A stretch of 64,000 nucleotides of DNA from Leuctra nigra (Eukaryota; Arthropoda; Insecta; Plecoptera; Leuctridae), in contig OW203770.1 of assembly GCA_934045905.1 (NCBI GenBank), positions 5,766,001-5,830,000 on the forward strand, written 5' to 3'. The notes below the pieces were generated by a model that saw nothing but the letters and a program-made list of their open reading frames with translations, did not search any database and was not told the DNA's origin. Position numbers and translations under genes: made by a program. Positions 27,896-51,991 of the stretch are shown piece after piece (position 1 is the first letter of the stretch; each line of letters starts with the position of its first letter).

Positions 27896-28099
27896 AAAAA
27901 CCCGTCATAAAATACCACTGTTTGAGAGGTACTCTTTGAGAGGTCACATACATCCTTTTAAGGTTATCCCTATTTATCCCTATATCCCCAGGGAGCTCCT
28001 GTGTTTGCTGGGGATACTTATTGGGTCAAAGACAGATTATGCTTGGCATGCTTCAGTGGTCCAGTACAGCTCCATGGTCCAGTGATACTGAAGAGTTGA

Positions 28100-28475
28100 T
28101 GTGTGTCAGGGTGTTGGGAGGAATGGACAGGTGGTTGATGTGATTGGAGGTTACCGGAGTGGACCTGGTGGCCATGCATTCATAAGAGAGTTAATTGATA
28201 AGGCAAGCCAATACAGGGTTGATGACAATGTACTTATTGTTGGTGATTTTAATTTTCCTAATATGAAATGGGAACAAGGATTAGGTGATGGGCAATCCCA
28301 ACAGAGCTTGATACACAAGTTTATGAATCAAGGGTTTGAAATGTCTGTTACGAAAGGAACAAGAGTGATTGGAGATGAGAAGTCACATCTTAGATATTAT
28401 CCTAGTTAAACCCGAAGGAAATTAAGCCAAGTGTGAGGTAAGAGAAGGAATAAGTGATCACAAAGCAGTTCAAAA
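28100..28475 (+). pseudogene. LINE endonuclease (EEP/APE-like) fragment
   Basis: The open frame 28101-28409 reads VIGGYRSGP and then LIVGDFNFPNMKWEQG, the GDFN motif of exonuclease-endonuclease-phosphatase domains in CR1/L2-like retrotransposons. After a frame break, GISDHKAV (the catalytic SDH motif) is visible near 28447-28470. The reverse transcriptase that should follow is absent; the BEL/Pao remnant begins instead on the other strand. Confidence 0.8.
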
Positions 28476-28591
28476 AGCAGAGCAGACGGCCGCTGACAAA
28501 GCAGTCAGCAGTTCAAGACTAGTACAGTAATCTAATGACTTGTAATGACTGCCGCTTGTCTCGCCGCTTGTAGAGCGGCGAAATGCTCTTC

Positions 28592-30085: not shown

Positions 30086-30267
30086 TTATCTATTATCTAG
30101 ATACATTTTTGGCAGTATATCTTTATCTCTAGATAAAAATAAAATTATCTAATCACAACACAGATCGTGCATAGATAGATTAGAAATATAGGCCAGATGT
30201 GAAATATACATCATCTACTATAATGCCTATAATGCCCTAAAGAACGATGCCACAGAAGCTCACTTAC

Positions 30268-30333
30268 CAGATGGCAGCCCTGGTTGATATGGCAGAACTG
30301 AACTATATCCCTTGATGAAGGTCCTGGCTGCTG
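30268..30333 (-). CDS. Exon 4 of unknown gene
   Basis: A 66-base stretch lies between acceptor GTTCTCAG and a near-perfect donor CATCTG|GTAAGTGAG, in phase 0 at both ends, encoding 22 residues starting QQPGPSSRDIVQ. A second open frame reads TFIKGYSSVLPYQPG but does not fit the phases of the flanking exons. It could be alternatively spliced, since skipping it also keeps the frame. Confidence 0.5.
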
Positions 30334-30567
30334 CTGAGAACACACAATTGTAATTTCAATGTATAGATCACGTCATAACTACATGATTGCTATCATCATC
30401 CATTACAAAACCTGGCAAGCTAGAAATGGAGGATTAAATCGACACATAAAGTATGAATTTATTGGGATATACTTAGTAACTTTAACTTAGTTAGTCACAA
30501 AGTTGAACATATGGATTGAAATGTTACTCATTATATAAAGAGAAGATTTAAAGTACGAAACAATAAA

Positions 30568-31175
30568 CTAGGAAAACGCTCTGTGTAACGCGTTGATGAG
30601 CGAGCACGGACACGCGCAACACCTCGAACCGGAATTTTGTCTATCGAAAATATCATTAAACGCCAATAATTCTTGAAATGTGTCTGACTTATAAGTATAA
30701 AAATCTCCAAATATTATCCGTAAAGTATTAGTCCCATAATAGCCATGCAAAGTTTTAAGTTGATCGATTGAACCTTTGTGATTAAAATGTTCCTTGTTAA
30801 TATTTAAAAAATATAGGGTATATTTAAAAAATATAGGGTATATTTAAAAAAAATATACCTGGGACCACTCATATGATAAAAGTGTGTGTACTTACACAAT
30901 ATTAGACGATCTGTTGAACGGTCATATCAGTTTCATACGTTTGAAAGTTTCTGCTCCAACTACCTTGGAACTATAAAGAGTCGAAGTAGCCGTGATCTAC
31001 ATTTTCGAGAATTTTGACAGCCAACACGCAAAATGCCCGTAAAATGTCAATAACTTTTGGATTTAAACACAGATTAGTATGAAAATTCTCAAAAATATAG
31101 ATAATGTCGGTCCCAATTACCATGAAAAGTTTTAAGTTGATCGGTCATACGGTTCTAGTTTAAGAGGCGTATTTG
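30568..31175 (-). mobile_element. Helitron-like element, copy
   Basis: The left edge A|CTAGGAAAACGCTCTGTG followed by TAACGCGTTGATGAGCGAGC and ACACGCGCAACACCTCGAAC matches 14829 closely for about 600 bases. It contains a threefold 20-bp tandem (TATTTAAAAAATATAGGGTA) at 30815-30860 and lacks the right end. Confidence 0.62.
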
Positions 31176-31374
31176 TTAAACTATTCAATATATTCTATAA
31201 TTTGACACTTTGGGGTGGTGGAGAGCTCCACCTTGCCCCGCAGGGCTTTTTTTGGTTTTTTGACACTTTGAAATTAACTTTTTCGAGTTTTTTTTTGCTT
31301 ACGAAATGAAGCAAGACGTAACACCACAAAATTTTTAAGTATTCCTGACATCTACACTCTTCAGCAAAAAACTA

Positions 31375-31485
31375 TTTTTTTTAGGTATACGGCGTATACC
31401 CGCGTATACCCCTTCTAAGTTTTTGGGTATGCTTTCCAGTGAAAAAACTTTTTTAGGTATACGGCGTATACCCGCGTATACCCTT
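31375..31485. repeat. Short direct duplication GGTATACGGCGTATACCC
   Basis: GGTATACGGCGTATACCCGC with flanking T and TATACCC occurs near 31384 and near 31456, itself a near palindrome. The second copy leads into the duplicated exon-bearing segment. Confidence 0.7.
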
Positions 31486-31547
31486 GACTACACCACTGCA
31501 CACAAGAATGCGCTTTGACTCTTGGATTTGGAATCTCCTCACAGTAC

Positions 31548-31639
31548 CTCATCTGGGCGTGGCAAGTCATGTACTGGGTCGACGGAACTGTCGTCGTCGT
31601 CGTGTAGGTCTCGTGGCCCCAGTATGGTAATAGATGAGG
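31548..31639 (-). CDS. Exon 3, proximal copy, of unknown gene
   Basis: This is the near-identical copy of exon 46406-46315, with the same acceptor, donor and phases and one codon changed (ACC Thr instead of CCC Pro). It ends in phase 0 and so can join the 30333-30268 exon. The other frame open over most of this stretch (YWGHETYTTTTT...) does not keep phase with the neighbouring exons. Confidence 0.6.
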
Positions 31640-31884
31640 CTGTAAATCGAAAAAGTATTGTGTCACTCATGACTTATCAAAAACAACGGGAAGGAACAAC
31701 GGTTTTCTAAAAGGTACTGTGTGTTAAACATGCTGCATGATCGAGCGATTTTGCCGCATTTTGCAGGCACTTGTTTGGTTACGATTGGAGACAAAATAGG
31801 TTGACGAAATGATTGAAATTTTAACCATGATTAGATATAAAAGACAAACTTAGGGTTATCCCTTTGGTACATTTTAATGTTTTG

Positions 31885-32200
31885 CTTCGTTAATTAGTAA
31901 AAATTAGTTGATTTTTGGTGAAAAATTGTGTATTTTCATGTCTCATTGGGTGCCGTATGAAATTTAATATTATTATATATAAAGTTGTTGTTTTGTTTTT
32001 TTTTGGGGGGGGGCTTAACGTCCCACTGTTCTGCAGCGAGGCTGACTGTTCGCTGCAGAACAGTGCGACGTTAAGCCCCACCTCAAAAAAATATAATAAT
32101 ATTAAATTTCATACGACACCTATTGAGACATGAAAACATTCAATTTTTCAACAAAAATCAACTAATTATTATTTCTAATTAACAAAGCAAATAATTAAAA
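31885..32200. mobile_element. Intronic foldback centred on paired SINE tails
   Basis: Arms carry GTGCCGTATGAAATTTAATA and its complement. The centre reads CTTAACGTCCCACTGTTCTG, a 28-base spacer, then CAGAACAGTGCGACGTTAAG, which is two SINE 3' tails (compare 10085-10115) placed head to head. The same structure recurs at about 46650-46965. Confidence 0.8.
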
Positions 32201-32221
32201 ATTTCTATTATAGTTTTTTAC

Positions 32222-32273
32222 CTGTTTCAACTGGCCTATCCGGTCTTGGAACCCTATAGACGCCGCTCACCAA
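32222..32273 (-). CDS. Exon 2, proximal copy, of unknown gene
   Basis: This is the near-identical copy of exon 47040-46989, with the same splice sites and phases and one codon changed (TAT Tyr instead of TTT Phe). Its exon 3 partner lies at 31639-31548. Confidence 0.6.
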
Positions 32274-32772
32274 CTGAAACACCGACACATTTTTATAATC
32301 TCCATGAACACAATACGTGTTCAAAATTGCGGTTTTCACTTCAGTGGCATATGTTTCCTTCTGTCTGGAATGGAGATGTTAGGATTCAGCTAGGTCTGAG
32401 GGGGCGTGCTTCTAAAGACAATTCTTTGGGAAAAAATCATATGGGTGCATTAACTTAGCCCAGCCACAAAATGATATCAAAAAACGAAAAAGATAGTCGT
32501 TTGGTGCTCGTTTTGTGCTGAAATGTGCCGTAAAAAAATCGTTTTGAGCTGTCGCCATTTTGAGTGAATGTTAATTTTTAAGTGGCTGGGCCATAGAGGC
32601 TGGGCTAAGTTAATGCAAAACAAGCAAAAAAATAAAAACTTCGTATTAGTTAATTTTCTTGCACTGTCCGAATTGTGCTCGTTTTGTGCTGATTTGTGCC
32701 GTTGAGAAATCGTTTTGAGCTCATACCGTTTCAAAGTTATCGCCCGTTTTAAATGGCTGGGCTAAGTTAATG

Positions 32773-33940
32773 CTAGCCCAGCCACATTCAAATAATCAAA
32801 CCAAAATAGGCATGCGTTTTGTGCTCGTTTTGATCTGATTTGTGCCGTTGAGAAATCGTTTTGAGCTCATCCCGTTCCAAAGTTATCGCCCGTTTTAATT
32901 GGCTGGGCTAAGTTAATGCTAGCCCAGCCACATTCAAAAAATCAAACCAAAATAGGCATGCGTTTTGTGCTCGTTTTGTGCTGATTTGTGTAGTTGAGTA
33001 ATCGTTTTGAGCTCATCCCGTTCCAAAGTTATCGCCCGTTTTAAATGGCTGGGCTAAGTTAATGCTAGTTCAGCCACATTCAAATAATCAAACCAAAATA
33101 GGCATGCGTTTTGTGCTCGTTTTGTGCTGATTTGTGCCGTTGAGTAATCGTTTTGAGCTCATCCCGTTCCAAAGTTATCGCCCGTTTTAAATGGCTGGGC
33201 TAAGTTAATGCTAGCCCAGCCACATTCAAATAATCAAACCAAAATAGGCATGCGTTTTGTGCTCGTTTTGTGCTGATTTGTGCCGTTGAGTAATCGTTTT
33301 GAGCTCATCCCGTTCCAAAGTTATCGCCCGTTTTAAATGGCTGGGCTAAGTTAATACTAGCCCAGCCACATTCAAATAATCAAACCAAAATAGGCATGCG
33401 TTTTGTGCTCGTTTTGTGCTGATTTGTGCCGTTGAGTAATCGTTTTGAGCTCATCCCGTTCCAAAGTTATCGCCCGTTTTAAATGGCTGGGCTAAGTTAA
33501 TGCTAGCCCAGCCACATTCAAATAATCAAACCAAAATAGGCATGCGTTTTGTGCTCGTTTTGTGCTGATTTGTGCCGTTGAGTAATCGTTTTGAGCTCAT
33601 CCCGTTCCAAAGTTATCGCCCGTTTTATATGGCTGGGCTAAGTTAATGCTAGCCCAGCCACATTCAAATAATCAAACCAAAATAGGCATGCGTTTTGTGC
33701 TCGTTTTGTGCTGATTTGTGCCGTTGAGTAATCGTTTTGAGCTCATCCCGTTCCAAAGTTATCGCCCGTTTAAAATGGCTGGCCTAAGTTAATGCTATAG
33801 CCCAGTCACTTTCAAATAATCAAACCAAAATAGGCATGCGTTTTGTGCTCGTTTAGTGCTGATTTGTGCCGTTGAGTAATCGTTTTGAGCTCATCCCGTT
33901 CCAAAGTTATCGCCCGTTTTTAAGGGCTGGTCTAGGTTTA
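32773..33940 (+). repeat. 146-bp tandem array, left arm, eight units
   Basis: CTAG of GCTAGCCCAGCCACATTC (or its variant) recurs at 32773, 32919, 33065, 33211, 33357, 33503, 33649 and 33795, exactly 146 apart. Each unit holds AAACCAAAATAGGCATGCG, TTTTGTGCTCGTTTTGTGCT and CCGTTCCAAAGTTATCGCCC. Units are nearly identical; the outermost are more diverged. Confidence 0.95.
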
Positions 33941-34882
33941 CAGTTCGAAAACGTCCATAGCTTATTATTTTCGAAAGATATCGCACGTTTTGAGTGGCTG
34001 GGGCCTGTTTACACTTTGCAGTAGTAAATCGTTTTTAGCATCAAGTTCAAAATAGGTATGTCACCCGTTTTAGAATATAGTCCCGCAGATTGGACTAACA
34101 TTTCGGCGTTTGGTGATAGAAGCATGGATTTTGGACTATTTGTTCAGAAAAATTTACAGACGCCCTATCGAAATATTGACTCATTTGGGGGTGGCAGGAG
34201 TGCAAACTTTAGAGGCTGAAAATGGCTAAAACATATGATTACTTTTAAACGTAACATTTAATGTAATATTGGATTTGGAAATTTTTATTCAGAGCTGCTA
34301 ACATGTCTGACTTTTATCAAATCAAATCAAATGTACCATATCTTGGAAAGGCAGGGTCCATAGACGATATCACAGTAATTCAACTTGGATATTATTAGTG
34401 CCTCAACGATTTTAGTTTTAGATGATCTTGTAAGGATTTGTTTGTATCTTTGCATTGTCGTAATTTGAAGTAATTGCCTTGCTTTTTGCGCTCTGAATAT
34501 GATCTGAGTAAGTCATATAGGCATCCTGCGTGAGAAAAGGTTGCCATAGTAACCTATACAAAAGTATAGGGAAAAACAAATCTGACAGCGGCAATCCAAA
34601 TCTCATATTTTGAGTGATTACTTGTGAAAGAAAGATATTTAAGTAAGTACAAGCTAATAATAATACGCAATATTTATCTTTACACATGTTCAAGTTAAAT
34701 ATTCATCTGATAAATATGATTTATTGCTATTATTTAGAGCTTTGACACATATCCCCTACCATAGCAGCCTCCATTTTTCTACCACTGTGACGTCACGAGC
34801 AGGATTCCTATTGCTATCCATGATCAATCCTAAATTCCTGGAATTTTCTGAAATGGGAATTGTGCAACCATTTATATGAACA
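33941..34882. other. Interior of the giant foldback element, left part
   Basis: AT-rich sequence with one further degenerate array relative (CGAAAGATATCGCACGTTTT, near 33972) and no coding region recognised. Confidence 0.5.
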
Positions 34883-35010
34883 TTAGGAAAACGCTCAGTG
34901 AAATGCGTTGATAAGCGAGCACGGGAACGTGCAAATTCTTGAACCGGAAATGCGTTCACAACGCACAGAAAACATATACATCCATATTGAATTGAAATAT
35001 ATGCCACTCA
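34883..35010 (-). mobile_element. Helitron-like 3' end, diverged
   Basis: ATTAGGAAAACGCTCAGTGA followed by AATGCGTTGATAAGCGAGC is the family end with CTAG changed to TTAG. The interior (CTTGAACCGGAAATGCGTTC) is the inverse of sequence at 9130-9240. Confidence 0.55.
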
Positions 35011-35290
35011 ATCAACATAAAAGTATATGCTTTTCATCGAAACATGAAAATAGCATCTAATCACCTTGGTACATAATGGCAAATCAGATCCATGTGGCAC
35101 TGGAAAACATTCATTTCGATACTTCATATCTGACAGCTATTATAAATGTCAATAAGTTCATACGCTCTTAAGGGGGTTCCAGGGTTACGGCATAGGAATG
35201 AGAATTTGCTGTAATTCACACCAAATATTAGTGAAACCGTATTACATACAACTAGCAAAAAATATTTGCCCCTTACGGTATCATATAATC

Positions 35291-37503
35291 TAGTGGAGCG
35301 GTCGCTCCACCCAGCCAAGTCGTACTGTACACTCACACTCACTCAACATACCATAAATGCCTAATAAGCTGAGGAGCAGACCAAACACTTTTACTGTAAG
35401 CAACAACATGGCATTTTCGGCCTACTGGATCTTAAAATTGGAAAATCTCACATTGTTGCGAAATATCTTAATTTCGAGCTATGGCCCACCTGACAACATA
35501 TAACAAATGTGGGAACAGTAGGTTATTTTATTTGCGAGCTAGAGGGCCGTGAAAACAGTGAAATTACACCCTTTTTAAATGGTATCTTCTTCTTCTTCAG
35601 ATGTCAGAAAACACCGCTGTCACCGCCACAGCCTATACGGCTAAACCGATCGATCTGAAATTTTTACCACATGTGCACTTTTGGCGTCTGAGGTGCCTTT
35701 TTATAAAACCAACCGGAAGCCGCTATTTTGAAACCGGAAGTGACGTCATATCTCGAAAACGGCTAGACCAATCGGAATGAAACTAGCGCCAAATGATTCA
35801 GACGGTCATCTATATGGAATATCAATAGTTGAAGTAGAAATGTTCTTTTACCGAAACCGGAAATGACGTCATAAATATAAATAATCATACTTTTATAACC
35901 TCTTACTACAATAACTACATAAACAGAAGGCTTATAATGATACAAAACATTTGTTGAAATAACTTCTAGGTGGCAGTAATTTCAGCGGCCATTTTGAAAT
36001 CCAGAAGTGATGCCACATCTCGAAAACGGCTGGACCGATTGGAACAATGCTTTCGAAATTCTCATGGAATATCTCTTCAGCGTATATTTAGAACCAAACA
36101 CAATTTTTCTTACTAACCAATTCGGAAATGGCGTATTTTTTTTAAAGGAATTAGTCATTGTTGCTCTGATATGTGTTACTAGTTGTGTAAATAAACTAAA
36201 AAAATTAGTGATATCCCCATAAAAAACACTCCGTGTAAAAATGCCAGCCAAGTCTCTTCAACTATAAAAAAATAGAAGAAATCAAAAAATTCAGCACTGA
36301 AAAGGAGTGATATCAAAAAAGGAGCCAAGTCAACGAATTTTCAAAAATTTTATCGTACCATTGAAATAAAAATATAACCCACCGAGAAATACTTAAAAAA
36401 AAGGACTTGGCGCATCGTTTTTTTAAAGACACTTCCTAAAATTAGGAAGAATTCTTTTCCTGGGTCAATCACATTCATTATCGATTAATCAAACTACCTT
36501 TCACAATACCTATAACACTTATCTACACTCTTACACTATTACTATTACACTTATTGTCAATATATAGAAGACAGATTTATTGGTGATGTTGAAGAAATAT
36601 AATTGCAGATGGTTTGTTTGACACGGAAGTGGCCTATTATATTCGTATGCCACTATTTCTAGGGTCATATTAGGAAGACCTCAACATTCCATCTTGACTG
36701 AGGGAAGCCACGAAAGTGCTCATTACAAGAAGGCCGTCAATGGGATATGTAGCTCGGGCCTCTGGAGTGCAAATTAAGAGACTAGTGCACTGAGCTCAAA
36801 TAATTAACTAACAATCTAAAGTAACACGTTGCGTAATTTATGACATTTAGGACCAGTCTTTCAATACTCTGCTAACTTTTAAACGGTTTATTAGGACTGG
36901 ATTGTCATGGCAACAACCAATGACATTCCTAGAATGCCTCTGTTAAGTAAATAACTTGTTTAAATGCACAGGATTGAAAAATTGGACTTTATTGGTATAA
37001 AATGTTAATTAATAACAACTATAATTACACGACGAGAAGGTTCTGAGTATGATAGTTCATTAGGAATGATAATTTACCTACCACGAAACTACCTACCAAT
37101 CACAAACATATTTGTTCTGTATTTATTGATTGTAAGACAAATGCAAAATATTTCTTTGCGTACTTATATTAAAATTGAAAATATTTTACGGAATGTTTAA
37201 TATTTAATTTGACAGTTTTGTCCCAATTTTTCTAGAAATTTCTAAACGACGTAGTATGTGAGTGTCTTAAGCTTATGAATTGAAAAGTGTCTTTAAAAAG
37301 CGATGCGCCAAGTCCTTTTTTTTAAGTATTTCTCGGTGGGTTATATTTTTATTTCAATGGTACGATAAAATTTTTGAAAATTCGTTGACTTGGCTCCTTT
37401 TTTAATATCACTCCTTTTCAGTGCTGAATTTTTTGATGTCTTCTATTTTTTTATAGTTGAAGAGACTTGGCTGGCATTTTTACACGGAGTGTTTTTTATG
37501 GGG
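35291..37503. mobile_element. Composite repeat family, copy 2 (head plus long hairpin)
   Basis: The head (35291-36214) matches 18952-19869 with substitutions. The hairpin part (36215-37503) starts CCCCATAAAAAACACTCCGT and ends with the inverse; the terminal inverted repeats are about 205 bases and enclose about 870 bases of unique sequence. In copy 1 the same hairpin encloses only about 70 bases. Confidence 0.72.
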
Positions 37504-37859
37504 ATTAGATATGCTTGATTAAAGATCACTTTTTCCCCCATAAGATAACACAGGGAGACATGAAATCGTCCCGGAAAATTGGCCTTAAATTGCTCCTAAA
37601 ACCGCAAGAGGAATGACAAATTATTGAAAATAGCCTCAAATTAAAGATAATAATTTTTAGAATTAGACTGCCGTTTGAAAATATGGGGTCACGGGCCAAA
37701 TAAGAAAGAAAATGTGTACAATGTGTGAAATTTACCATAAATCTGGCAACATTGCACTACAAATATGAATTATTATATAATTGGAGCGTACGGTAAGATA
37801 TAATTGTTTTATGCTGTTGTTTGAGGTATTATTTCATCAGAGATTTGTATGAATTACGG

Positions 37860-38125
37860 CGAATTCTAAGCACCTTGGCTGGAGCAGTGGGACCACTTTA
37901 ACTGATTGGGATGGAAATTTGTAAAATAAGAGACAATGTTGGTCTTAATGACCATGCAAAATATGAGTTTGATCACATTTATCGAAGACCATTTTAATTT
38001 TTCAGCCTAACAGGAGATAATTATTTAAATTTTGACCAATGAATGGATTTCAAAAAATAGGGTCTGCAAACAGAGAATGTTGATTTACATGTGTGCAATA
38101 TTTCAGATCGATCGGTGAAACGGTG
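37860..38125. repeat. Diverged relative of Helitron-like interior
   Basis: Phrases such as ACAATGTTGGTCTTAATGAC, CATGCAAAATATGAGTTTGA and TTTCAGATCGATCGGTGAAA parallel the interior of the 14829 element. No terminus is present. Confidence 0.45.
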
Positions 38126-38539
38126 CGACCTGTGCATCGGTTAATAGCAGAAAAGAAGATGTCCGTGCCAAAAGAGCCAAAAGGAAGCATTTCTTTAACA
38201 ACTCGAACCAAACAAGACAATTGTCTCAAAACTTAATTCATTATTGGTCTCTAAATGAGATTTTCAGCTGTTTTTGCTTGAATCAGAAATACAGTTTGGC
38301 AAGCTAAACAATACTATTTTACAATTACAACAATTTTAAATACAATTTTTTTAATTAATAGGTATTCACTAAGAATTGTAGAAAGTAGAAGCAAAATAGT
38401 GTATTCTATTTCTGGGAGAAAATTGTTCGGTCAAATTTTCAAAATTGTGGAAACGATATCTTCCAGGCAGCTTCCTCTTAAATAAAAATAAATTAAGTTA
38501 TACATGGCGGATTACTTTAAAGCAGTTTGGCGCCCTGTG

Positions 38540-38700
38540 CCAAAACAATAAATGGCGACCCCCCACCCCCCACCCCCTTCATTTCAGAAATACAATGAGG
38601 CAAATTGAAGTTTGCAAACGCAAACAATAGGGGGTCTGGTGGGAGGCCCCCCCTCCCCCCCAGTACAATGCGTAAATGTGGCGTATAGCCCCGGAAAATT
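38540..38700 (-). repeat. GC-rich dispersed repeat, copy 2 (inverted)
   Basis: GGGGGTCTGGTGGGAGGCCC, CCCCCAGTAC and AGCCCCGGAAAATTTTGGAT mirror the block order at 8640-8750. Confidence 0.6.
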
Positions 38701-38810
38701 TTGGATTTCTAGATCACATTTGGTCTCTTTTTGAGTACCAAAATGTACCTATAGTTTGGATACAATATTGAACACATATTTTTAAATTTAGGACTGTAAT
38801 ACTGTACAGA

Positions 38811-39005
38811 AAAAAACACTCCGTGTAAAAAAGGCAGCCAAGTCTATTTACTTTAAAAAAATTCAACACCGAAAAGGAGTGATATCAAAAAAGGAGCCAA
38901 GTCAATGACATTTCCAAATATTTAATCGTATTTTTGAAATAAAAGAATAAACACCGAGAAATACTTAACAAAAGGACTTACCGCATCGTTTTTTTAAAGA
39001 CATCA
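38811..39005. mobile_element. Single hairpin arm of the CCAGCCAAGTC family
   Basis: AAACACTCCGTGTAAAAAAG, GGAGTGATATCAAAAAAGGA and AGGACTTACCGCATCGTTTT match the left arm at 36215-36420. The second arm is missing. Confidence 0.7.
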
Positions 39006-39332
39006 TTCTATCCTAAAAGGGGGAAAGAAATTTACAAGTAGGAACATTTTCCTCTTTCTAAAAGAGCCAGAATCTATAATTCAAGCTACTTTTAGTAATA
39101 GCTATTTTATAGTTTTGTCAATGGCGATAGAAGAAAGATTTCATGCTGTAATAGCTAAATAATATAAGGATGGAAGAATTAAATAACAATTGGAAGTGGG
39201 CTCATACATATTCTTGCAGTACTGTAAATATGGTGATATTAGAAGGGTCTTTTCATAATTTGATCTTGACTGAAGAAAATCATGAAACGTTGTCAAATAA
39301 TGACTAACTATCTATGGAACACTATTATATAT

Positions 39333-39588
39333 TGTTACATAGCTAACTTCACACTGTCACTTTCAAATATATGATAACCTGAGGTTGGTACTACTGACGA
39401 CCTTGCTAGGATTCCACTTGCCAGATCTCAATCAGTCACTCTGCCTCATTTCTGTTCTACCTCTCTTCAGGGATTGACCTACCATTAACCTTGCTATTAT
39501 TACTAATAAACATCACTTCTTGTATTCATCATCATCTTTTATTTAACATTGTAATCCGACATCATCTGGCCTTACCACGGACACAACA
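39333..39588 (+). repeat. Gypsy 5' LTR
   Basis: 256 bases from TGTTACATAGCTAAC to CGGACACAACA. AATAAACATCACTTCTTG near 39508 could supply the polyadenylation signal. It appears identical to 43596-43851 on reading. Confidence 0.95.
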
Positions 39589-39590
39589 AC

Positions 39591-39603
39591 TGGCGACGAG
39601 GAT
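39591..39603 (+). other. Gypsy primer binding site, tRNA-Ser(GCU) type
   Basis: TGGCGACGAGGAT, two bases after the LTR, is complementary to a tRNA 3' end reading ATCCTCGTCGCCA. As I recall, tRNA-Ser with anticodon GCU ends in CCTCGTCG plus CCA, so this is the likely primer. Confidence 0.7.
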
Positions 39604-39668
39604 ATTTCAAGAGTTTAATTATGTGTGCATTATATTTTGTTAATATTGAGTCATAATTTCGTCACACA

Positions 39669-42600
39669 ATGCCGAAAGAGGAAAATGAAGAAAAAGGGAA
39701 TCTGCACATGGCCGGCAACACATACGGTAAGCTGCAAGAATTCAATAAATCTTCTTCTTGGCCAATATACAAGGAAACGATGGAATATTATTTCCTAGCA
39801 AATAAAATCATCGAAGTGAAACTCAAGAAAGCTATTTTTCTTACCTCGATGGGAGAATGGGCCTACACTACACTCAGGAATATTTGCAGTCCATCTGAGA
39901 CCACAGAGTTAGGATTTGATGAAATAATCAAGAAGATGACTAATCACTTCAGTCCGCCACCTAATGAAATTCTGCAGAGGTATCTATTTAACCAATGTGT
40001 ACAGGAACAGGGCGAATCCCTGGCTCAATTCACAGCTAGGTTAAGGGCGGCCTCAGAACATTGTAAATTTCTTGATCTTGATAACATGCTCCGGGACCGA
40101 TTGGTTTTTGGGGTTAAAGATGAAGCACTAAGGATAAGATTCTTACGAGAGATCAATTTAACTTTTCATCAAGCCCATACAATGGCAATAGCGGCGGAAA
40201 CAGCTGGGCACAGCGCCTCAGCCATGAAAGAAGTGAAGAATAGTACACCTGAAGGCAATCTGCACAAGATGCAGACTACCTACAAACCTGTGGAAACAAC
40301 ATGTTACAGGTGTGGTGGTGAGCATACATCAAAGGCATGCAAGTATGCTTTATCAAAATGTACTTTCTGTCAAAAGGTAGGCCATCTACAACGCGTCTGT
40401 TTCGCGAAGAAGAGGAGAGAGAAGCCTCAGCAGCAGAACAAGATAAAACCGACGACTTTCCAAGCGAGGTATGTCAATCTGTATTCTGCTAACATGGTGC
40501 TCGCAGTCGACAAGAAACCCAGCGTAAACAACGCGCCTTTCAACGTCGATTTGGAACTTGATGGGCATCCCATCAAGATGGAAGTGGATTCCGGGGCCAC
40601 ACGCTCCATTATCAGTGAATCTACTTACAAGAAGGTCTGGCCGAAACACCATCGACTAGTCCAAGAAGCCATTCTTCTGCAGACATGGTCCAAGCAGAGA
40701 CTCCGAATTCTGGGGTCAACAGAAGTAACGGTTGAGCACAAAGGCAAATTACACACCCTGTCACTGCTAGTAGCAGAGGGGGAGGGGCCGAGTTTGCTGG
40801 GCCGCAACTGGTTCGAGCCACTCGGAATCCACATAGAGGGGGTTCATCACCAGGAGATACCAAACCTGGGTGAGTACGAGACAATTTTTGATGCACCTGG
40901 GACCTATAACGGACCACTAGCTACCATTGAAATAGAACCCAACTCAAGACCTGTCTATTTAAAAAGTAGACCGGTACCATTTGCCATTCGAGAGAAGGTT
41001 GATGCTGAGCTGACGAAGCTGATCGAGCAGGGGGTTCTGGAACCTGTTCCTCATTCAACCTGGGCAACACCGATAGTTCCAATCGTCAAGCCCGATGGAT
41101 CTATTCGCCTTTGTGGCGACTACAAAGGTACAGTAAATTTATCAATTAAGACTGATACCTATCCTCTACCCACTGCTAGTGAATCATTTGCATCACTAGC
41201 TGGAGGCCGATTCTTTAGCAAGTTAGATCTGGAGAACGCATACACCCAGGTTAAGGTGGATGACGCGTCTGCCAGCCTTCTGACACTCAACACGCCGAAG
41301 GGACTGCTAAAGTGTCATCGTCTGGCTTTTGGAGTAGCCTCAGCGCCTGGTCTATTCCAACGACTGATGGAATCTCTCCTGGCAGGAATTCCGGGAGTGG
41401 CAGTTCTGTTGGACGACATCCTCATCACGGGGAAGGACCTGGACGAACATTGGATTCGGGTACGTCAGGTGTTGAAGCAACTTTCAGATGCAGGACTACG
41501 GCTGAAACGCAGCAAATGTTCATTTGCGGCGAAGTCTGTCCATTTCTTGGGGTACCGAGTAGATGCATCAGGCATACATCCCACCACCGAGAAGTTTGAC
41601 GCCATACAAAACGCGCCAGCACCGGCAGACAAGAAATCTCTACAAGCATTCCTAGGACTGCTGAATTTCTACGAGCGGTTCCTGTCAAACAAAGCTACCG
41701 TGTTAGAACCATTACACCGGCTTCTGCACTCGACCAATAAGGTATGGACATGGTCAGCTATTCACCAAAACGCTTTCAATAAAGCTAAAGACTTGTTGAA
41801 ATCAGATCAAGTATTGTCACACTATGACACGACAAGACCACTGACACTTGTCTGTGATGCCTCGCCGTATGGCGTGGGGGCCGTTATTTCGCATGTAATG
41901 GACGACGGATCTGAAAGACCTGTAGCTTTTGGATCGCGCACACTTCACAAACATGAACGCAACTATGCGCAGATAGACCGTGAAGCTCTAGCAATAATTT
42001 TTGGCTTGACCAAGTTCAGAAATTATTTGTATGGTCGTCATTTTGTGATCTACACGGATCACAAGCCATTACTGGGCTTGTTCAACCCTCATAAGCAGAC
42101 ACCAGAGGTCATGTCACCACGAATGTTGCGATGGGGAACAACATTGAATTCTTTTAACTTAGATCTTGAGTACAGACCTGGAACTTCCATGGGGAACGCC
42201 GATGGACTCAGCCGGTTGCCATTACCTGACACCACGTCGACTGTGATCACACCAGCTGATGTTTTCCTGCTCGAGGTTCCGGACAACTCGGAATCGCCCA
42301 TCACAGCTACCGAGATCGCGACAGCTACTCAACAGGACAGCCTACTCACTCGCGTATACAGATACGTATTGCAAGGTTGGCCTGAGGACAAACTGCCTAC
42401 AGAATTTGCTCCATATGCTGCTCGCAAAGAATCGCTCTCTACCCACAAGAACTGTCTCATCTGGGGAAGCAGAGTTGTAATTCCACCTGTTTTTCGCCAA
42501 CAAATACTTGACATGTTACATTTCACTCACCAGGGAATCGTCCACACAAAGGCGATTGCTCGCAGTTACTTTTGGTGGCCTCATCTCGACGACGACATCG

Positions 42601-43514
42601 AGAAGGAGATACGAAGTTGTGAGATCTGTCAATCGCTACGTAACAACCCACCGAAAGCACCAGCACATCCGTGGACAACGCCAGTGAATCCATGGTCGCG
42701 CCTACACATCGATTTTGCAGGACCGTTCAACGGGAAACTGTTTCTCATTGTTGTGGATGCTTACTCAGGATGGCCTGAAATTGTCATTACTCCAAACATG
42801 ACCACATCTACAGTAATCAAACATTTGCGCAGGATTTTCACCACCCACGGATTACCTGACGTTATCGTTTCAGATAATGGTACACCGTTCGTGTCAGAGG
42901 AATTCATTTCTTTTCTTTCTGCTAGTGGAATTCGAAGGAGAAATTCTGCACCTTTCCACGCTGCAACGAACGGAAAAGCTGAACGAATGGTGCAAACTCT
43001 CAAGCAGATGTTGAGGAAAATCGACATAGTCAACTGGGAATCGAAGCTGAACACCACACTCTTCGCGATCCGTACTACGCCTCGAGCTTCCACTGGAAAG
43101 AGCCCAGCCGAGATGCTCATGAATCGCCGACCGAGAACCTTGTGGAGCAGACTTCATCCAGAGACACTACCAGTTCAAGAGAGCATGCCACTAAAACCCC
43201 GTAGTTTTATGTTGCAGCAACCTGTTTCAGTGAGGAACTACGTAACGGGAGCACCGAAGTGGTTACCGGCCATCGTTACACAGGTGACCGGTCCACTCTC
43301 ATACCAAGTCACTACGACCGATGGACGGTTGATGTCACGACACGTCGACCAGATACTCGCCCGACTGGAGAAGCAACCAGCAGAGCCAGTACCAAAGCCG
43401 ATTTCTCGACTGCCGAAGCAGCCAGCCGAACAAATCCCAGACCGGACCGCTCAAGACTTCCTCGGGGCCAGACCTCGCAGAATCAAGAAGCGTCCAAGAA
43501 GATTGGAAGACTGA
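39669..43514 (+). CDS. Gypsy Gag-Pol polyprotein
   Basis: A single open frame of 1281 residues. The Gag region (about 1-200) is followed by two zinc knuckles, CYRCGGEHTSKAC (one residue shorter than the usual spacing) and CTFCQKVGHLQRVC (about 211-245). The aspartic protease has VDSGATRSII (about 305) and LLGRNWF. Reverse transcriptase has LDLENAYTQV and the catalytic VLLDDILITG (about 580). RNase H has LVCDASPYGVGAVI (about 727) and YTDHKPLLGLF. Integrase has an HHCC zinc region (HQGIVHTKAI to CEICQ, about 953-995), the catalytic Asp in HIDFAGPF (about 1014) and SDNGTPFVSEEF (about 1068), and a Glu in GKAERM. Gag and Pol share one frame with no shift. The ATG at 39669 lies 66 bases after the primer site. 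All catalytic motifs look intact. Confidence 0.97.
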   Translation: MPKEENEEKGNLHMAGNTYGKLQEFNKSSSWPIYKETMEYYFLANKIIEVKLKKAIFLTSMGEWAYTTLRNICSPSETTELGFDEIIKKMTNHFSPPPNEILQRYLFNQCVQEQGESLAQFTARLRAASEHCKFLDLDNMLRDRLVFGVKDEALRIRFLREINLTFHQAHTMAIAAETAGHSASAMKEVKNSTPEGNLHKMQTTYKPVETTCYRCGGEHTSKACKYALSKCTFCQKVGHLQRVCFAKKRREKPQQQNKIKPTTFQARYVNLYSANMVLAVDKKPSVNNAPFNVDLELDGHPIKMEVDSGATRSIISESTYKKVWPKHHRLVQEAILLQTWSKQRLRILGSTEVTVEHKGKLHTLSLLVAEGEGPSLLGRNWFEPLGIHIEGVHHQEIPNLGEYETIFDAPGTYNGPLATIEIEPNSRPVYLKSRPVPFAIREKVDAELTKLIEQGVLEPVPHSTWATPIVPIVKPDGSIRLCGDYKGTVNLSIKTDTYPLPTASESFASLAGGRFFSKLDLENAYTQVKVDDASASLLTLNTPKGLLKCHRLAFGVASAPGLFQRLMESLLAGIPGVAVLLDDILITGKDLDEHWIRVRQVLKQLSDAGLRLKRSKCSFAAKSVHFLGYRVDASGIHPTTEKFDAIQNAPAPADKKSLQAFLGLLNFYERFLSNKATVLEPLHRLLHSTNKVWTWSAIHQNAFNKAKDLLKSDQVLSHYDTTRPLTLVCDASPYGVGAVISHVMDDGSERPVAFGSRTLHKHERNYAQIDREALAIIFGLTKFRNYLYGRHFVIYTDHKPLLGLFNPHKQTPEVMSPRMLRWGTTLNSFNLDLEYRPGTSMGNADGLSRLPLPDTTSTVITPADVFLLEVPDNSESPITATEIATATQQDSLLTRVYRYVLQGWPEDKLPTEFAPYAARKESLSTHKNCLIWGSRVVIPPVFRQQILDMLHFTHQGIVHTKAIARSYFWWPHLDDDIEKEIRSCEICQSLRNNPPKAPAHPWTTPVNPWSRLHIDFAGPFNGKLFLIVVDAYSGWPEIVITPNMTTSTVIKHLRRIFTTHGLPDVIVSDNGTPFVSEEFISFLSASGIRRRNSAPFHAATNGKAERMVQTLKQMLRKIDIVNWESKLNTTLFAIRTTPRASTGKSPAEMLMNRRPRTLWSRLHPETLPVQESMPLKPRSFMLQQPVSVRNYVTGAPKWLPAIVTQVTGPLSYQVTTTDGRLMSRHVDQILARLEKQPAEPVPKPISRLPKQPAEQIPDRTAQDFLGARPRRIKKRPRRLED

Positions 43515-43595
43515 TTTATTTTCTTGCATTTCAATTTCCACTGTTTTCAATATTGTACTAAATGTATAATTTTCAATTTCAACTAGGGGGAGGAC

Positions 43596-43851
43596 TGTTA
43601 CATAGCTAACTTCACACTGTCACTTTCAAATATATGATAACCTGAGGTTGGTACTACTGACGACCTTGCTAGGATTCCACTTGCCAGATCTCAATCAGTC
43701 ACTCTGCCTCATTTCTGTTCTACCTCTCTTCAGGGATTGACCTACCATTAACCTTGCTATTATTACTAATAAACATCACTTCTTGTATTCATCATCATCT
43801 TTTATTTAACATTGTAATCCGACATCATCTGGCCTTACCACGGACACAACA
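43596..43851 (+). repeat. Gypsy 3' LTR
   Basis: 256 bases, identical by eye to 39333-39588, preceded by the polypurine tract and followed by the TATAT target duplication. Confidence 0.95.
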
Positions 43852-44019
43852 TATATTTTGAAGTGTCAAGTGTATAAAGTTAAATTTTTTAATAGAAATT
43901 TAAATTTAGGACTGTAATACTGTATATTCATTGCTAAAACAACCTATGACATTAAAATATCAACATGACATGATAATGAATACAATAATATTTTTACTTT
44001 AGGTCTACACTATCAATAT

Positions 44020-44215
44020 TACACATTTTGACACCCCTCCAGGTGCCCTTTAGGCACTCCCTCGAGCTTGGCGACCTGTGCGGGGACACTGGTCGCACAC
44101 CCCTAAAACCGGTCCTAAATGTTTTCCTAAACTAATTTACAATTTTTTACCTGCTGTAGAAAGGAAAAAAAACCAACACCTTTTTTTCACTAAATAAAGA
44201 TTATTATTATTTTAA
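44020..44215 (+). mobile_element. LINE 3' untranslated tail remnant
   Basis: A GC-richer segment (CCAGGTGCCCTTTAGGCACT, GGGACACTGGTCGCACACCC) ends in CTAAATAAAGATTATTATTA, an AATAAA followed by ATT units as at 27215-27240. No coding sequence remains. Confidence 0.5.
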
Positions 44216-44644
44216 ATAATTGTTAGAATCACGTCAGTTAGCTCTCCTGATAGGTAGCGACAATGTGTATTTAAAGTTGCTATATTATCCTGAAATGTTC
44301 CAACTCCCAAACAATTCCAATTCCATTAATTACCGTTAAGTTCCATTAATTATTATCTTAATATACCTATGGGCAGTCGATTATGGCTAGTCGGTTGCGG
44401 GAAAGAAGGCCCATGATATAGATTATTGATGTTTTGTTCATCTCCTGACACAATATATTGTAAACAGGAACTGATCAAATTAAAATAATATACCTACCAT
44501 TGATCATCGTTAGTAATTATTATATTTATTGAAATTACGAAATTAGATTTGAGTATAACCTCGCTTGATTCAAAACTATATGTAGTTTTGGTTTGATTAA
44601 ATTTTAATGTGGCCCGTTTTTAATAGCTGAGTTAAGATAATAGT

Positions 44645-45550
44645 TACTATCCCAGCCGTTTAAAACGGCGATAACTTTGGAACGGGATGAGCTCAAAACG
44701 ATTACTCAACGGCACAAATCAGCACAAAACGAGCACAAAACGCATGCCTATTTTGGTTTGATTATTTGAATGTGGCTGGGCTAGCATTAACTTAGGCCAG
44801 CCATTTTAAACGGGCGATAACTTTGGAACGGGATGAGCTCAAAACGATTACTCAACGGCACAAAACGAGCACAAAACGCATGCCTATTTTGGTTTGATTA
44901 TTTGAATGTGGCTGGGCTAGCATTAACTTAGCCCAGCCATTTAAAAGGGGCGATAATTTTGGAACGGGATGAGCTCAAAACGATTACTCAACGGCACAAA
45001 TCAGCACAAAACGAGCACAAAACGCATGCCTATTTTGGTTTGGTTATTTGAATGTGGCTGGGCTAGCATTAACTTAGCCCAGCCATTTAAAACGGGCGAT
45101 AACTTTGGAACGGGATGAGCTCAAAACGATTACTCAACGGCACAAATCAGCACAAAACGAGCACAAAACGCATGCCTATTTTGGTTTGATTATTTGAATG
45201 TGGCTGGGCTAGCATTAACTTAGCCCAGCCATTTAAAACGGGCGATAACTTTGGAACGGGATGAGCTCAAAACGATTACTCAACGGCACAAATCAGCACA
45301 AAACGAGCACAAAACGCATGCCTATTTTGGTTTGATTATTTGAATGTGGCTGGGCTAGCATTAACTTAGCCCAGCCATTTAAAACGGGCGATAACTTTGG
45401 AACGGGATGAGCTCAAAACGATTACTCAACGGCACAAATCAGCACAAAACGAGCACAAAACGCATGCCTATTTTGGTTTGATTATTTGAATGTGGCTGGG
45501 CTAGCATTAACTTAGCCCAGCCATTTAAAACGGGCGATAACTTTGGAACG
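44645..45550 (-). repeat. 146-bp tandem array, right arm, six to seven units
   Basis: CTAG marks lie at 44781, 44917, 45063, 45209, 45355 and 45501. The spacing is 146 except for one 136-bp unit that lacks about ten bases (TCAGCACAAA). It is the reverse complement of the 32773 array. Confidence 0.95.
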
Positions 45551-45694
45551 GGATGAGCTCAAAACGATTTCTCAACGGCACAAATCAGCACAAAGCGAGC
45601 ACAATTCGGACAGAGCAAGAAAATTAACAAATACGAAGTTTTTATTTTTTTGCTTGATTTTGCATTAACTTAGCTCAGCCACTTAAGACGGCTG

Positions 45695-46072
45695 GGTAGT
45701 GAGTTTGACCTTGAAGAGTTTTTTAATCGATTTTTATCAATATCTTTTTTCCAGTGTAATTGTTAACAAAATAGGCTATGGACGTGAATTCAGAACAGTT
45801 CACTGAAAATTATTGCATAGTTTGGAATAAGTTATTAGTTTTATTTTGTCCGACAGGTGTTTAGAACCCGAAAATTTAGTAATTTTCGGGTTCTAAACAC
45901 CTGTTGGACACAATAAAACTAATAGCTTATTCCAAACCATGAAATTATTTTCATTGAACTGTTCTGAATTCACGTCCATAGCCCTATTTTGATAACAATT
46001 ACACTGGAAAAAGATATTGATAAAAATCGATTAAAAAACTCGTCAAGGCCACGCTCACTACCAAGCCCTCTT
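45695..46072. mobile_element. Hairpin inserted in the right arm of the giant foldback element
   Basis: GGTAGTGAGTTTGACCTTGA at the left is mirrored by AAGGCCACGCTCACTACC at the right. Arms of about 180 bases (GGCTATGGACGTGAATTCAG, TTCGGGTTCTAAACACCTGT) meet at 45880. The left arm of the giant element lacks it, so it inserted later. Confidence 0.88.
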
Positions 46073-46314
46073 AAAAATTAACATTCACTCAAAACGGTGA
46101 CAGCTCAAAACGATTTTTTTACGGCACATTTCAGCACAAAACGAGCACAAAACGACTATCTATTTCGTTTTTTGATATCATTTTGTGGCTGGGCTAAGTT
46201 AATGCACCCTATACCCGCGTATACCCTTGACTACACCACTGCACACAAGAATACTCGCGAGTGTGTGTTTACCCTTGCGCTTTGACTCTTGGATTTGGAA
46301 TCTCCTCACAGTAC

Positions 46315-46406
46315 CTCATCTGGGCGTGGCAAGTCATGTACTGGGTCGACGGAACTGTCGTCGTCGTCGTGTAGGTCTCGTGGCCCCAGTATGGGAATAG
46401 ATGAGG
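46315..46406 (-). CDS. Exon 3, distal copy, of unknown gene
   Basis: This 92-base exon follows acceptor TTTTTCGATTTACAG and precedes donor GATGAG|GTACTG. Two bases complete the codon begun in exon 2, then 30 codons follow, including the run DDDD, ending in phase 0. The copy at 31548-31639 differs by one residue (Pro here, Thr there). Because exon 2 begins and exon 3 ends in phase 0, both copies could be spliced in series without breaking the frame. Confidence 0.6.
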
Positions 46407-46988
46407 CTGTAAATCGAAAAAGTATTGTGTCACTCATGACTTATCAAAAACAACGGGAAGGAACAACGGTTTTCTAAAAGGTACTGTGTGTTAAACATGC
46501 TGCATGATCGAGCGATTTTGCCGCATTTTGCAGGCACTTGTTTGGTTACGATTGGAGACAAAATAGGTTGACGAAATGATTGAAATTTTAACCATGATTA
46601 GATATAAAAGACAAACTTAGGGTTATCCCTTTGGTACATTTTAATGTTTTGCTTCGTTAATTAGTAAAAATTAGTTGATTTTTGGTGAAAAATTGTGTAT
46701 TTTCATGTCTCATTGGGTGCCGTATGAAATTTAATATTATTATATATATAGTTGTTGTTTGTTTTTTTTTGGGGGGGGGCTTAACGTCCCACTGTTCTGC
46801 AGCGAGGCTGACTGTTCGCTGCAGAACAGTGCGACGTTAAGCCCCACCTCAAAAAAAATATAATAATATTAAATTTCATACGACACCTATTGAGACATGA
46901 AAACATTCAATTTTTCACCAAAAATCAACTAATTATTATTTCTAATTAACGAAGCAAATAATTAAAAATTTCTATTATAGTTTTTTAC

Positions 46989-47040
46989 CTGTTTCAACTG
47001 GCCTATCCGGTCTTGGAACCCTAAAGACGCCGCTCACCAA
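46989..47040 (-). CDS. Exon 2, distal copy, of unknown gene
   Basis: This is a 52-base exon between acceptor GTTTCAG and donor ACAG|GTAAAA. It enters in phase 0 and leaves in phase 1, encoding LVSGVFRVPRPDRPVET plus one base. It matches the end phase of exon 1 and the start phase of exon 3. It is one of two copies 14.8 kb apart; the other (32222-32273) has Tyr in place of Phe. Confidence 0.6.
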
Positions 47041-47404
47041 CTGAAACACCGACACATTTTTATAATCTCCATGAACACAATACGTGTTCAAAATTGCGGT
47101 TTTCACTTCAGTGGCATATGTTTCCTTCTGTCTGGAATGGAGATGTTAGGATTCAGCTAGGTCTGAGGGGGCGTGCTTCTAAAGACAATTCTTTGGGAAA
47201 AAATTATTTTTAATGTAAAAAAATCCACGCTTTGCGAATAAAATATAATATTGATACCTATAACCATATTTAATTTGGAGAAATGTTTGATTTCCGTATT
47301 TTTTTCTCCTCTAAGCCAATGAGCGTGGAGATCTTCAATAGGCGAGAAAATCGGATTGCAATTGGGCGTCGCTTAGCTGTTGGTCACGTGTCCATTTGTT
47401 AGAG

Positions 47405-47550
47405 AGGCTGCGAACACACGGGGCGACTTTTAGAAGCGGCGATTTTCTCAAGTTGTATGCAAACCCTTATTGAATGACGTCACTGATATTACCTTGCCAA
47501 CTACTAAAAAGCGTCGAGCTTCTAAAAGTCGCCCCGTGTGTTCGCAGCCT
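47405..47550. mobile_element. Short foldback (MITE-like)
   Basis: AGGCTGCGAACACACGGGGC at the left and GCCCCGTGTGTTCGCAGCCT at the right are perfect inverses; about 35 bases pair at each end. Confidence 0.88.
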
Positions 47551-48792
47551 AACAATCTCACAAAGTGCTGAACGTAGCAAACAATACAGACATGCCACAC
47601 GATCGCGCCAAACGGAGGTCGCTGCAAGTACTCGCTGTTGAGCCAAAACTCTTTACGAATGGAATCTACACGAGTGAAACGGCCCTTATGCCCATTGCTG
47701 AACGTAGCAAAGGGTACAGACGCGCCAATACCCTATACGTCTATAAAATATTCCCTTTATTGTATAGACTTTGGCCATTATAGTCAGGGAACAGAATCTG
47801 AAAAGACGTCTCCTTCTCATGAGTACAAGTAAATCGTGTTAAAAGCAAACTGAATAGTGATTCCCACTAACTCAACCCCGCTGAATCCAAAAAGTGACGT
47901 TGGCAATTCGAAATCCGACTCCTTCTACCCTTAAACTTAAAAAACCCTGTTCTAGGGGTTTAAAGCTAAAAACCGTACCAAATTTGTCAAAACTTACGAT
48001 AAAATTACGAAAAAAAACTCATGTCAAGTTTAAATACTGATTAATAAAATGGCATCTTCAAAATTTTGATAATGACCCTTCAAACTTGCTGATTGGGCCC
48101 ATTATCTCAAAAAACGCACTTGCTAATTTTTCACAAAAAAATATAACTTGTCGGTGCTGCTTAACTAAGAAAGTCATAAAGCTCATACTTTACAAAAAAC
48201 TGCCCAATACAATAAGGAAGATAATGCAGTTTACCGCATTTCGGTAGATTGCCGGGTTACTTAAATATAGTCATTTGAATAAAGCAACTCCACGGGCCCG
48301 CTGCATCGCCCTAGCGTCCCACAGCTTGGCCCAACGGTATTGCGGTGGAGGGGGGATGATGTGACGGGGAACAGTCAATGCGAGCTAGGCATTTATAGCG
48401 CGAAACTGTGTGTTCACCATGCAGCTATTCAAAACTAATTATTCACTGTGAAATTGTCAATTTTAATGTACACTATGTCAGTTAGCAGAGGTTTGTTGTC
48501 ATTCTGTATGTGTGGGAGATTTAATCCTTCCTTTTGGCAAGTTATCAATCAATTGATCACATATAGATTAATCAATATACCAAGATAAAGTAATAAAACG
48601 AAGAAGTTAATGTACCGGGAATGTATATGATAAAAAGTAAAAACCCTACTCTGGACGACGCATCACTATGTAGAAACACAAATTAAAATAATGCCTCCGC
48701 ACTTTTCACTATAATGTAGAAGTGGCCACGGCTCAAGGTTTGTCGTGTTTTGCCCCAATTAATTCATTGAATAGATAGACCACATTATAGTC
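47551..48792. other. Gene-free intron DNA
   Basis: It contains a GC-richer patch at 47560-47720 with two similar phrases (CTGAACGTAGCAAACAATAC and CTGAACGTAGCAAAGGGTAC about 130 bases apart), no convincing exon, and AT-rich sequence otherwise. Confidence 0.45.
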
Positions 48793-51535: not shown

Positions 51536-51685
51536 TTTAAGACAGGATCAGTTCAAAAGTTATATGCAAAAGTTGCCACGCAACAAGTTTTAGCTTGAAA
51601 AAAAATTATTACTATTTTATATTATTTTTGTATTGTTGGACAATATTAGACAATATTTGTTTTGGTTGTCATGGCTGTTAATAAA

Positions 51686-51985: not shown

Positions 51986-51991
51986 CGAAAG

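What the first reader, a model, noticed from the sequence alone, without database searches (positions are those of the whole stretch)
31467..47204. Exon-pair duplication exactly bracketing a 13.8-kb foldback element
A 971-995 base segment holding two coding exons is present in direct orientation on both sides of the giant foldback element, which starts six bases after one copy and ends at the base before the other. This looks like a target-site duplication of about 1 kb, or a break-repair event at foldback insertion. The phases allow both exon pairs to be spliced in series, adding a 48-residue repeat, or to be mutually exclusive. Both exonic differences (Tyr/Phe and Thr/Pro) change the protein.
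Basis: partly seen in the sequence, partly recalled or inferred. Interest (0 to 1): 0.88.

Follow-up and report, generated by a model that had tools for sequence, protein, structure and literature searches.

The report
Foldback transposon between duplicated DNA segments
A roughly 1-kb stretch of an insect-like genome was doubled, most likely by unequal crossing-over between two nearby copies of a foldback transposon, one of which still sits between the copies; this is a known kind of accident, and the surrounding block was later copied to five places.

Summary
In detail: direct copies A (31467-32442) and B (46210-47209) abut both ends of a 13,767-bp foldback element (FB, 32443-46209). The interpretation changes. 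(1) It is not a 1-kb target-site duplication. The FB family makes 9-bp duplications (10 controls read: 7 exact and in place, 1 exact but offset, 8/9, 7/9); this FB has unrelated 9-mers (2/9). Its right flank belongs to the start of the unit (x), its left flank to the end (y). In A, x is uninterrupted and agrees with 10 dispersed repeat copies; y is crossed without interruption by 8 dispersed copies read and by an FB-free paralog. Unequal crossing-over between FB-at-x and FB-at-y leaves this, as at Drosophila Bar. (2) A one-locus haplotype artefact is unlikely: A-FB-B occurs at five loci of the assembly with identical junctions, inside a 98-100% identical block of at least 35 kb; no reads were available. 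(3) 'Coding exons' is unsupported: no known homologue, exon 1 partly dispersed repeat, paralog frame broken. (4) With the predicted boundaries the pairs cannot be read in series.

The parts
31467..32442 (.). Duplicated unit, copy A, from site x (first 9 bases TATACCCGC) to the 9-mer AAATCATAT that abuts the FB
32443..46209 (.). Foldback element, 13,767 bp; termini GGGTGCATTAAC...GTTAATGCACCC; no matching target-site duplication
32443..33938 (+). Left inverted arm: outer domain and about 8.7 units of a 146-bp tandem repeat
44648..46209 (-). Right inverted arm: about 6.5 units of the 146-bp repeat, outer domain, and a 392-bp palindromic insertion at 45683-46074
39333..43851 (+). Nested Ty3/gypsy-type LTR retrotransposon: LTRs 39333-39588 and 43596-43851 (256 of 256 identical), one open frame 39657-43511, TATAT on both sides
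46210..47209 (.). Duplicated unit, copy B, from TATACCCGC at the FB end to the uninterrupted y site
31370..31498 (+). Dispersed repeat containing x (31467); 35 other loci among the 40 matches scored, 92-98%, each running across x
47087..47300 (-). Dispersed repeat containing y; 29 other loci among the 40 matches scored, 82-87%, each running across y; includes about 45 nt of predicted exon 1
32222..32364 (-). Predicted exon 1, copy A (143 nt); coding status unproven
31548..31639 (-). Predicted exon 2, copy A (92 nt); its frame meets TGA two codons further on
46989..47131 (-). Predicted exon 1, copy B (143 nt)
46315..46406 (-). Predicted exon 2, copy B (92 nt)
8807..54521 (.). Window's share of a segmental duplication found at five loci (two of the other copies were seen to extend further left, four further right)

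Best explanation
Two copies of a foldback transposon inserted about 1 kb apart, at x (inside one dispersed repeat) and at y (inside another), on different chromatids or homologues, each making a 9-bp target duplication. Unequal crossing-over between them joined 'unit up to y + FB' to 'FB + unit from x', giving unit-FB-unit with one FB left between the copies, and the intervening segment doubled. The FB therefore carries the left flank of the y insertion and the right flank of the x insertion. A gypsy-type retrotransposon entered the FB, and the block (at least 35 kb) was then copied, so that five loci on two scaffolds carry it. Shown: the junctions, absence of a TSD against 10 controls, uninterrupted x in A, uninterrupted repeat across y in relatives, a single-copy paralog with no FB at y, five loci with the same junctions. 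Inferred: that the joining was homologous recombination and not a hybrid-end transposition; the order of gypsy insertion and A/B divergence; that the copies have no function as exons.
For: FB family with 9-bp TSDs in the 10 control elements read (10 of the 12 end pairs visible in the list outside the five loci): 7 exact at the boundary, 1 exact but offset by 3 bases, 1 with 8/9, 1 with 7/9; the window FB 2/9. Unit boundaries equal FB boundaries to the base at both ends, apart from two mismatches in the 9-mer at y. x in A is uninterrupted and agrees with the majority base of 10 sampled copies of the dispersed repeat at every position of 31456-31484, without a footprint; the 35 other matches listed cross x. 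The 29 dispersed matches listed cross y, 8 of them read, as does the paralog. The five A-FB and the five FB-B junctions are identical; five substitutions, a 24-base and a 1-base indel are fixed between A and B in the five loci. Precedents seen in passages: Bar with a roo element between the copies (PMC13322080), Galileo copies with non-matching or exchanged flanks (PMC3573991; PMC2775673).
Against: The FB arms are not clearly chimeric: 4 of 135 differences between the outermost parts, within the control range of 1 to 9 of 208-209, and no internal breakpoint could be placed. The 9-mer beside FB in A (AAATCATAT) matches the empty site in B (AAATTATTT) at 7 of 9 positions, more different than the rest of the unit. 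It needs two insertions about 1 kb apart. No locus with FB at x alone or y alone was found (one search scored 40 of 4371 candidates: the five pairs, one partial paralog and shorter repeat matches).
Confidence: 0.72

Rival explanations
1. Hybrid-end (alternative) transposition: one FB at x; the left end from one sister chromatid and the right end from the other were used together and inserted at y, giving the same unit-FB-unit product with one prior insertion only.
For: Known for maize Ac, where the Ac element lies between the tandem direct duplicates (PMC3744419, passages), and named for Drosophila as hybrid element insertion (PMC2775673, passages). Needs a single earlier insertion. FB arms are not clearly chimeric, which fits this model.
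Against: The vacated x site should usually carry a footprint (general knowledge); A at x matches the dispersed repeat over 31456-31484 without one.
Confidence: 0.17
2. Replication-based template switching or break repair at an FB doubled the segment.
For: Could join FB and unit; foldbacks are break-prone (general knowledge, no call).
Against: Both unit ends coincide with exact FB termini, which template switching does not predict.
Confidence: 0.05
3. Assembly artefact: two haplotypes, or FB-at-x and FB-at-y alleles, were threaded into one path.
For: No reads are available; an assembler could join two alleles through a shared 13-kb FB, giving exactly this layout.
Against: Five loci on two scaffolds carry the same layout and junctions with locus-specific differences and different outer flanks, and five A/B substitutions are fixed across the five.
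Confidence: 0.03
4. A 1-kb target-site duplication made by FB insertion.
For: Direct copies abut both FB ends.
Against: The ten control FBs read have 9-bp duplications, 7 exact in place and 3 imperfect or offset.
Confidence: 0.01

Closest known systems
Drosophila Bar (B1) duplication with a roo element between the copies
   Same: Tandem direct duplication with one transposable element at the junction, attributed to unequal crossing-over between two element copies (PMC13322080, passages).
   Different: 203.5 kb with genes and a visible phenotype; here about 1 kb of partly repeat-derived DNA, a foldback DNA transposon, and later copying to five loci.
px1 and ast1 alleles of Drosophila
   Same: 1.5-kb and 6.4-kb duplications with a TE or TE cluster (7.4 and 33.8 kb) between the copies (PMC13322080, passages).
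   Different: Retrotransposons, alleles with a visible phenotype.
Galileo and Tetris foldback elements of Drosophila
   Same: Long inverted arms, with internal tandem repeats; Tetris 8-10 bp TSDs; Galileo chimeric copies with non-matching 7-bp flanks and exchanged TSDs at inversion breakpoints (passages).
   Different: No sequence relation tested; this family has 9-bp TSDs; the product here is a duplication, not an inversion.
Maize Ac reversed-ends transposition duplications
   Same: Ac lies between tandem direct duplicates (PMC3744419, passages).
   Different: Starts from a pair of reversed ends; leaves an 8-bp target duplication shared with the deletion partner, which cannot be seen here.

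Membership tests
Foldback (FB-type) DNA transposon | Long inverted arms holding internal tandem repeats | tested here: met
   Arms 32443-33938 and 44648-46209 with 146-bp units
Foldback (FB-type) DNA transposon | Dispersed in the genome with constant termini and a fixed-length TSD | tested here: met
   Ten controls: same termini except A for the first G in two, one base change in one right end and a short insertion in another; 9-bp TSD exact in place in 7, exact but offset in 1, 8/9 and 7/9 in 2
Foldback (FB-type) DNA transposon | This copy flanked by a TSD | tested here: not met
   AAATCATAT / TATACCCGC, 2 of 9; expected for a recombinant copy
Foldback (FB-type) DNA transposon | Superfamily of the transposase (Mutator or P) | not tested
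   No frame of 100 codons or more inside this copy outside the retrotransposon stretch; bodies of the other copies were not fetched
TE-mediated unequal crossing-over duplication (Bar type) | Direct duplicates with one TE exactly at the junction | tested here: met
TE-mediated unequal crossing-over duplication (Bar type) | TE flanked by half-TSDs of two different sites | tested here: met
   with the x and y comparisons; the y 9-mer agrees with the empty site at 7 of 9
TE-mediated unequal crossing-over duplication (Bar type) | TE is a chimera of two parental copies | tested here: inconclusive
   Arm divergence within the control range
TE-mediated unequal crossing-over duplication (Bar type) | Outer sites x and y uninterrupted | tested here: met
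Large target-site duplication | Family makes about 1-kb duplications on insertion | tested here: not met
   Controls show 9 bp
Protein-coding exon pair | Homologue or selection on the frame | tested here: not met
   No Pfam match, only two PDB matches at E about 0.6, no protein sharing three words within the length limit; 5 of 5 exonic substitutions nonsynonymous; paralog frame broken
Protein-coding exon pair | Transcription | not testable with these tools
   No RNA data

The most novel reading that the evidence does not exclude
Foldback recombination created a gene with two alternative 3' terminal exon pairs, and this block is itself being spread to new chromosomal sites as a giant mobile or recombining unit, so that foldbacks act as a machine for making and then dispersing partial gene duplications.
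Probability: 0.06. Interest if true: 0.7.

Novelty: new member of a known kind. Interest (0 to 1): 0.3.

Why it matters
It is an unusually readable record of TE-mediated duplication: the same genome supplies ten control elements with 9-bp target duplications, dispersed repeats that show both insertion sites uninterrupted, and a single-copy paralog with no FB at y. It also shows that a small junction of this kind can be carried along when a large repeat-rich block is copied. It corrects the idea of a 1-kb target-site duplication and of a serial exon repeat.

Tried and rejected
Rejected: 1-kb TSD; in-series splicing with the predicted boundaries (by eye, an acceptor 4 nt further in would give an in-frame 231 nt, but the second exon still runs into TGA unless an unproven donor is used); haplotype artefact at one locus; an FB-bounded composite giant transposon for the whole block: in the window the FB terminus (up to 3 mismatches) occurs only inside 32447-46205, not at the block's ends 8807 and 54521, and the copies end at different places.

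Led nowhere: Rfam at its curated threshold gave only a tRNA; the phage records gave one chance hit (E = 2); viral contigs held no exact match to a 26-base piece of the 146-bp repeat; the test for chimeric FB arms was inconclusive. The count of mechanical AG...GT open stretches in the unit (81 on the minus strand, 43 on the plus; 20 shuffles of the minus strand mean 59, range 5-154) shows that open stretches alone prove no exon. Copy numbers of other pieces of the block and its right end were asked for but did not complete. The species was not identified; 'insect-like' rests on ADP-ribosylation-factor exons and recall.
Full report
OBSERVATION. Self-comparison of the window finds the direct repeat 31509-32437 / 46276-47204 at 99.2%, which the alignment extends to 31467-32437 and 46210-47204 with one 24-base indel. 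Between them lies an element with inverted arms (32443-33938 and 44648-46209) that hold 146-bp tandem units, about 8.7 on the left and 6.5 on the right. A gypsy-type retrotransposon with identical 256-bp LTRs and TATAT on both sides is nested in it.

THE ELEMENT. Searching the window's own genome (G000, 536 Mb, 144 contigs; window = C9:5766001-5830000) with the outer 223 bp gives many ends (40 of 83 candidates scored). Outside the five loci of the finding I see 12 pairs of facing ends in that list, and I read the ends of 10 of them. They share the termini GGGTGCATTAAC...GTTAATGCACCC, except that two begin with A, one right end has a base change and another a short insertion. Nine-base target duplications: 7 exact at the boundary, 1 exact but set off by three bases, one 8/9 and one 7/9 (the last two counted by eye from its output). 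The FB of the finding has AAATCATAT on the left and TATACCCGC on the right, 2 of 9 matching (by eye; the script's best identical stretch was 3 bases). So the family makes 9-bp duplications and this copy has none. A 1-kb target-site duplication is therefore not what the duplicated unit is.

WHERE THE FLANKS COME FROM. TATACCCGC, the right flank, is the start of copy B and the start of copy A (31467). In copy A this point x lies inside a dispersed repeat whose shared part ends at about 31498. Of the 40 matches scored (354 candidates), 5 are the A copies and the 35 others (92-98%) all run across x. Ten of them were read: A agrees with the majority base at every position from 31456 to 31484, with no inserted or lost base of its own (one of the ten has a private extra A there). 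AAATCATAT, the left flank, is the end of copy A; B has AAATTATTT at the same place (7 of 9) and goes on into flanking DNA. That point y lies in a second dispersed repeat. Of 40 matches scored (173 candidates), 10 are the unit copies, one is the paralog below, and the 29 others (82-87%) all run across y; 8 were read. So both sites are seen uninterrupted, and the duplicated unit reaches from one FB insertion site to the other. This is the product of unequal crossing-over between FB-at-x and FB-at-y. Hybrid-end transposition gives the same product from a single earlier insertion; the clean x site speaks against it, but the inconclusive chimera test (4 of 135 differences between the outermost arms, controls 1-9 of 208-209) does not exclude it.

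FB-FREE PARALOG. C4:31.761-31.770 Mb carries a diverged single version: matches to 51794-51291 (74%), 47780-47644 (83%), 47290-47096 (90%, straight across y), the exon-1 region, the intron 46872-46407 (85%) up to the exon-2 acceptor, and an exon-2-like stretch. No FB lies at y there. Its sequence beyond the 3' end has no convincing match to the left side of x (best E 0.002 over 48 bases), so x cannot be judged in it.

NOT LIKELY A ONE-LOCUS ARTEFACT. The 995-bp unit is found ten times near full length, as five A/B pairs: C9:5.80, C9:11.57, C4:34.35, C4:34.45 and C4:34.61 Mb (40 of 4371 candidates scored, so a lower bound). The five A-FB and the five FB-B junctions are identical, and five substitutions plus a 24-base and a 1-base indel separate A from B in all five. 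A copies differ from each other by 0-2 substitutions, B copies by 0-6, A from B by 5-11. The unit-FB-unit structure thus arose once and was copied afterwards. The copied block includes the gypsy element at all five loci. In what was fetched, all five share at least window 18617 to 53800 (about 35 kb) and four of them from about 13.9 kb, with long pieces at 98.4-100% identity and with losses and gains: the C9:11.57 copy lacks 17937-24333, 26850-29721 and 47778-51270, and 22653-23591 of the window is absent from the three C4 copies. The window's own copy ends at 8807 and 54521; the C4:34.35 and C9:11.57 copies go on to the left, and the four other copies go on to the right for 1.1 kb, 5.0 kb and, for two, at least 9 kb. 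A left-hand piece is also found at 99-100% at C4:34.42, C5:11.62, C4:16.71, C4:31.71 and C4:31.79 Mb and in part at C4:32.48 Mb. The three C4 copies at 34.3-34.6 Mb alternate in orientation. I call this segmental duplication; no common ends or target duplication were found, but not all ends were mapped. No reads were available, so read depth and spanning molecules remain unchecked.

THE EXONS. On the minus strand exon 1 (143 nt) and exon 2 (92 nt) are open in all ten copies. Against a gene: no Pfam match and only two PDB matches at E about 0.6, no protein sharing three words in the large database, where only proteins of similar length are candidates, only the same ten copies by protein search in the own genome, the first 45 or so nt and the acceptor of exon 1 belong to the dispersed repeat around y, the paralog lacks 10 nt of exon 1 in the three-sequence alignment and its frame breaks, and the five exonic substitutions among the copies are all nonsynonymous, which shows no purifying selection but is too few to prove drift. 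For a gene: splice-site contexts are acceptable, donor and acceptors persist in the paralog, and the exon-2-like stretch of the paralog stays open and ends, like the window's, with GAG GTA C-G TGA (last codons read by eye). That pattern makes exon 2 look terminal, so if there is a gene, the downstream pair A could serve only as an alternative 3' end. Serial use is excluded with these boundaries: 235 nt is not a multiple of three and the shifted frame of exon 1 holds a stop.

COMPARISON. Bar, px1 and ast1 of Drosophila are direct duplications with a TE or TE cluster between the copies (passages of PMC13322080). Galileo shows non-matching flanks in chimeric copies and exchanged flanks at inversion breakpoints (passages of PMC3573991, and PMC2775673). 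Tetris has foldback arms with tandem repeats and 8-10-bp TSDs (passages of PMC4079207). Maize Ac makes duplications with Ac between the copies (passages of PMC3744419). The finding is a new member of a known kind, with unusually good internal controls.

Noticed in passing
window 8807-54521 and L009-L029: A block of at least 35 kb is present at five loci on two scaffolds at 98-100% identity, with different end points; the three C4 copies alternate in orientation over about 300 kb.
   Followed up: partly
window 53800-54521: A palindromic element of about 720 bp: present in the window and the C9:11.55 copy, absent from the three C4 copies; the window's homology to the other loci stops exactly at its right end.
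   Followed up: partly
window 22653-23591: Insertion absent from the three C4 copies (the C9:11.57 copy lacks the whole stretch around it), with 15-bp repeats GGACGTTTTGCCGAC in inverted orientation near its ends.
   Followed up: no
window 47778-51270: Stretch with a 1.6-kb palindrome (48920-50524, 86% arms) that is missing from the C9:11.55 copy.
   Followed up: no
L050 1361-1823 and window 46407-46872: Between the FB-free paralog and the unit the intron is about 85% identical while the predicted exons align worse; either decay or fast-changing exons.
   Followed up: partly
window 51991-53278: GC-rich 108-bp tandem array (10.3 copies, 99%) beside a 33-bp array, open in several frames.
   Followed up: no
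window 58660-62103, minus strand: Exons of an ADP-ribosylation factor gene near the right end of the block.
   Followed up: no
window 5348-7648: Open frame of 767 codons without a Pfam match, left of the block.
   Followed up: no
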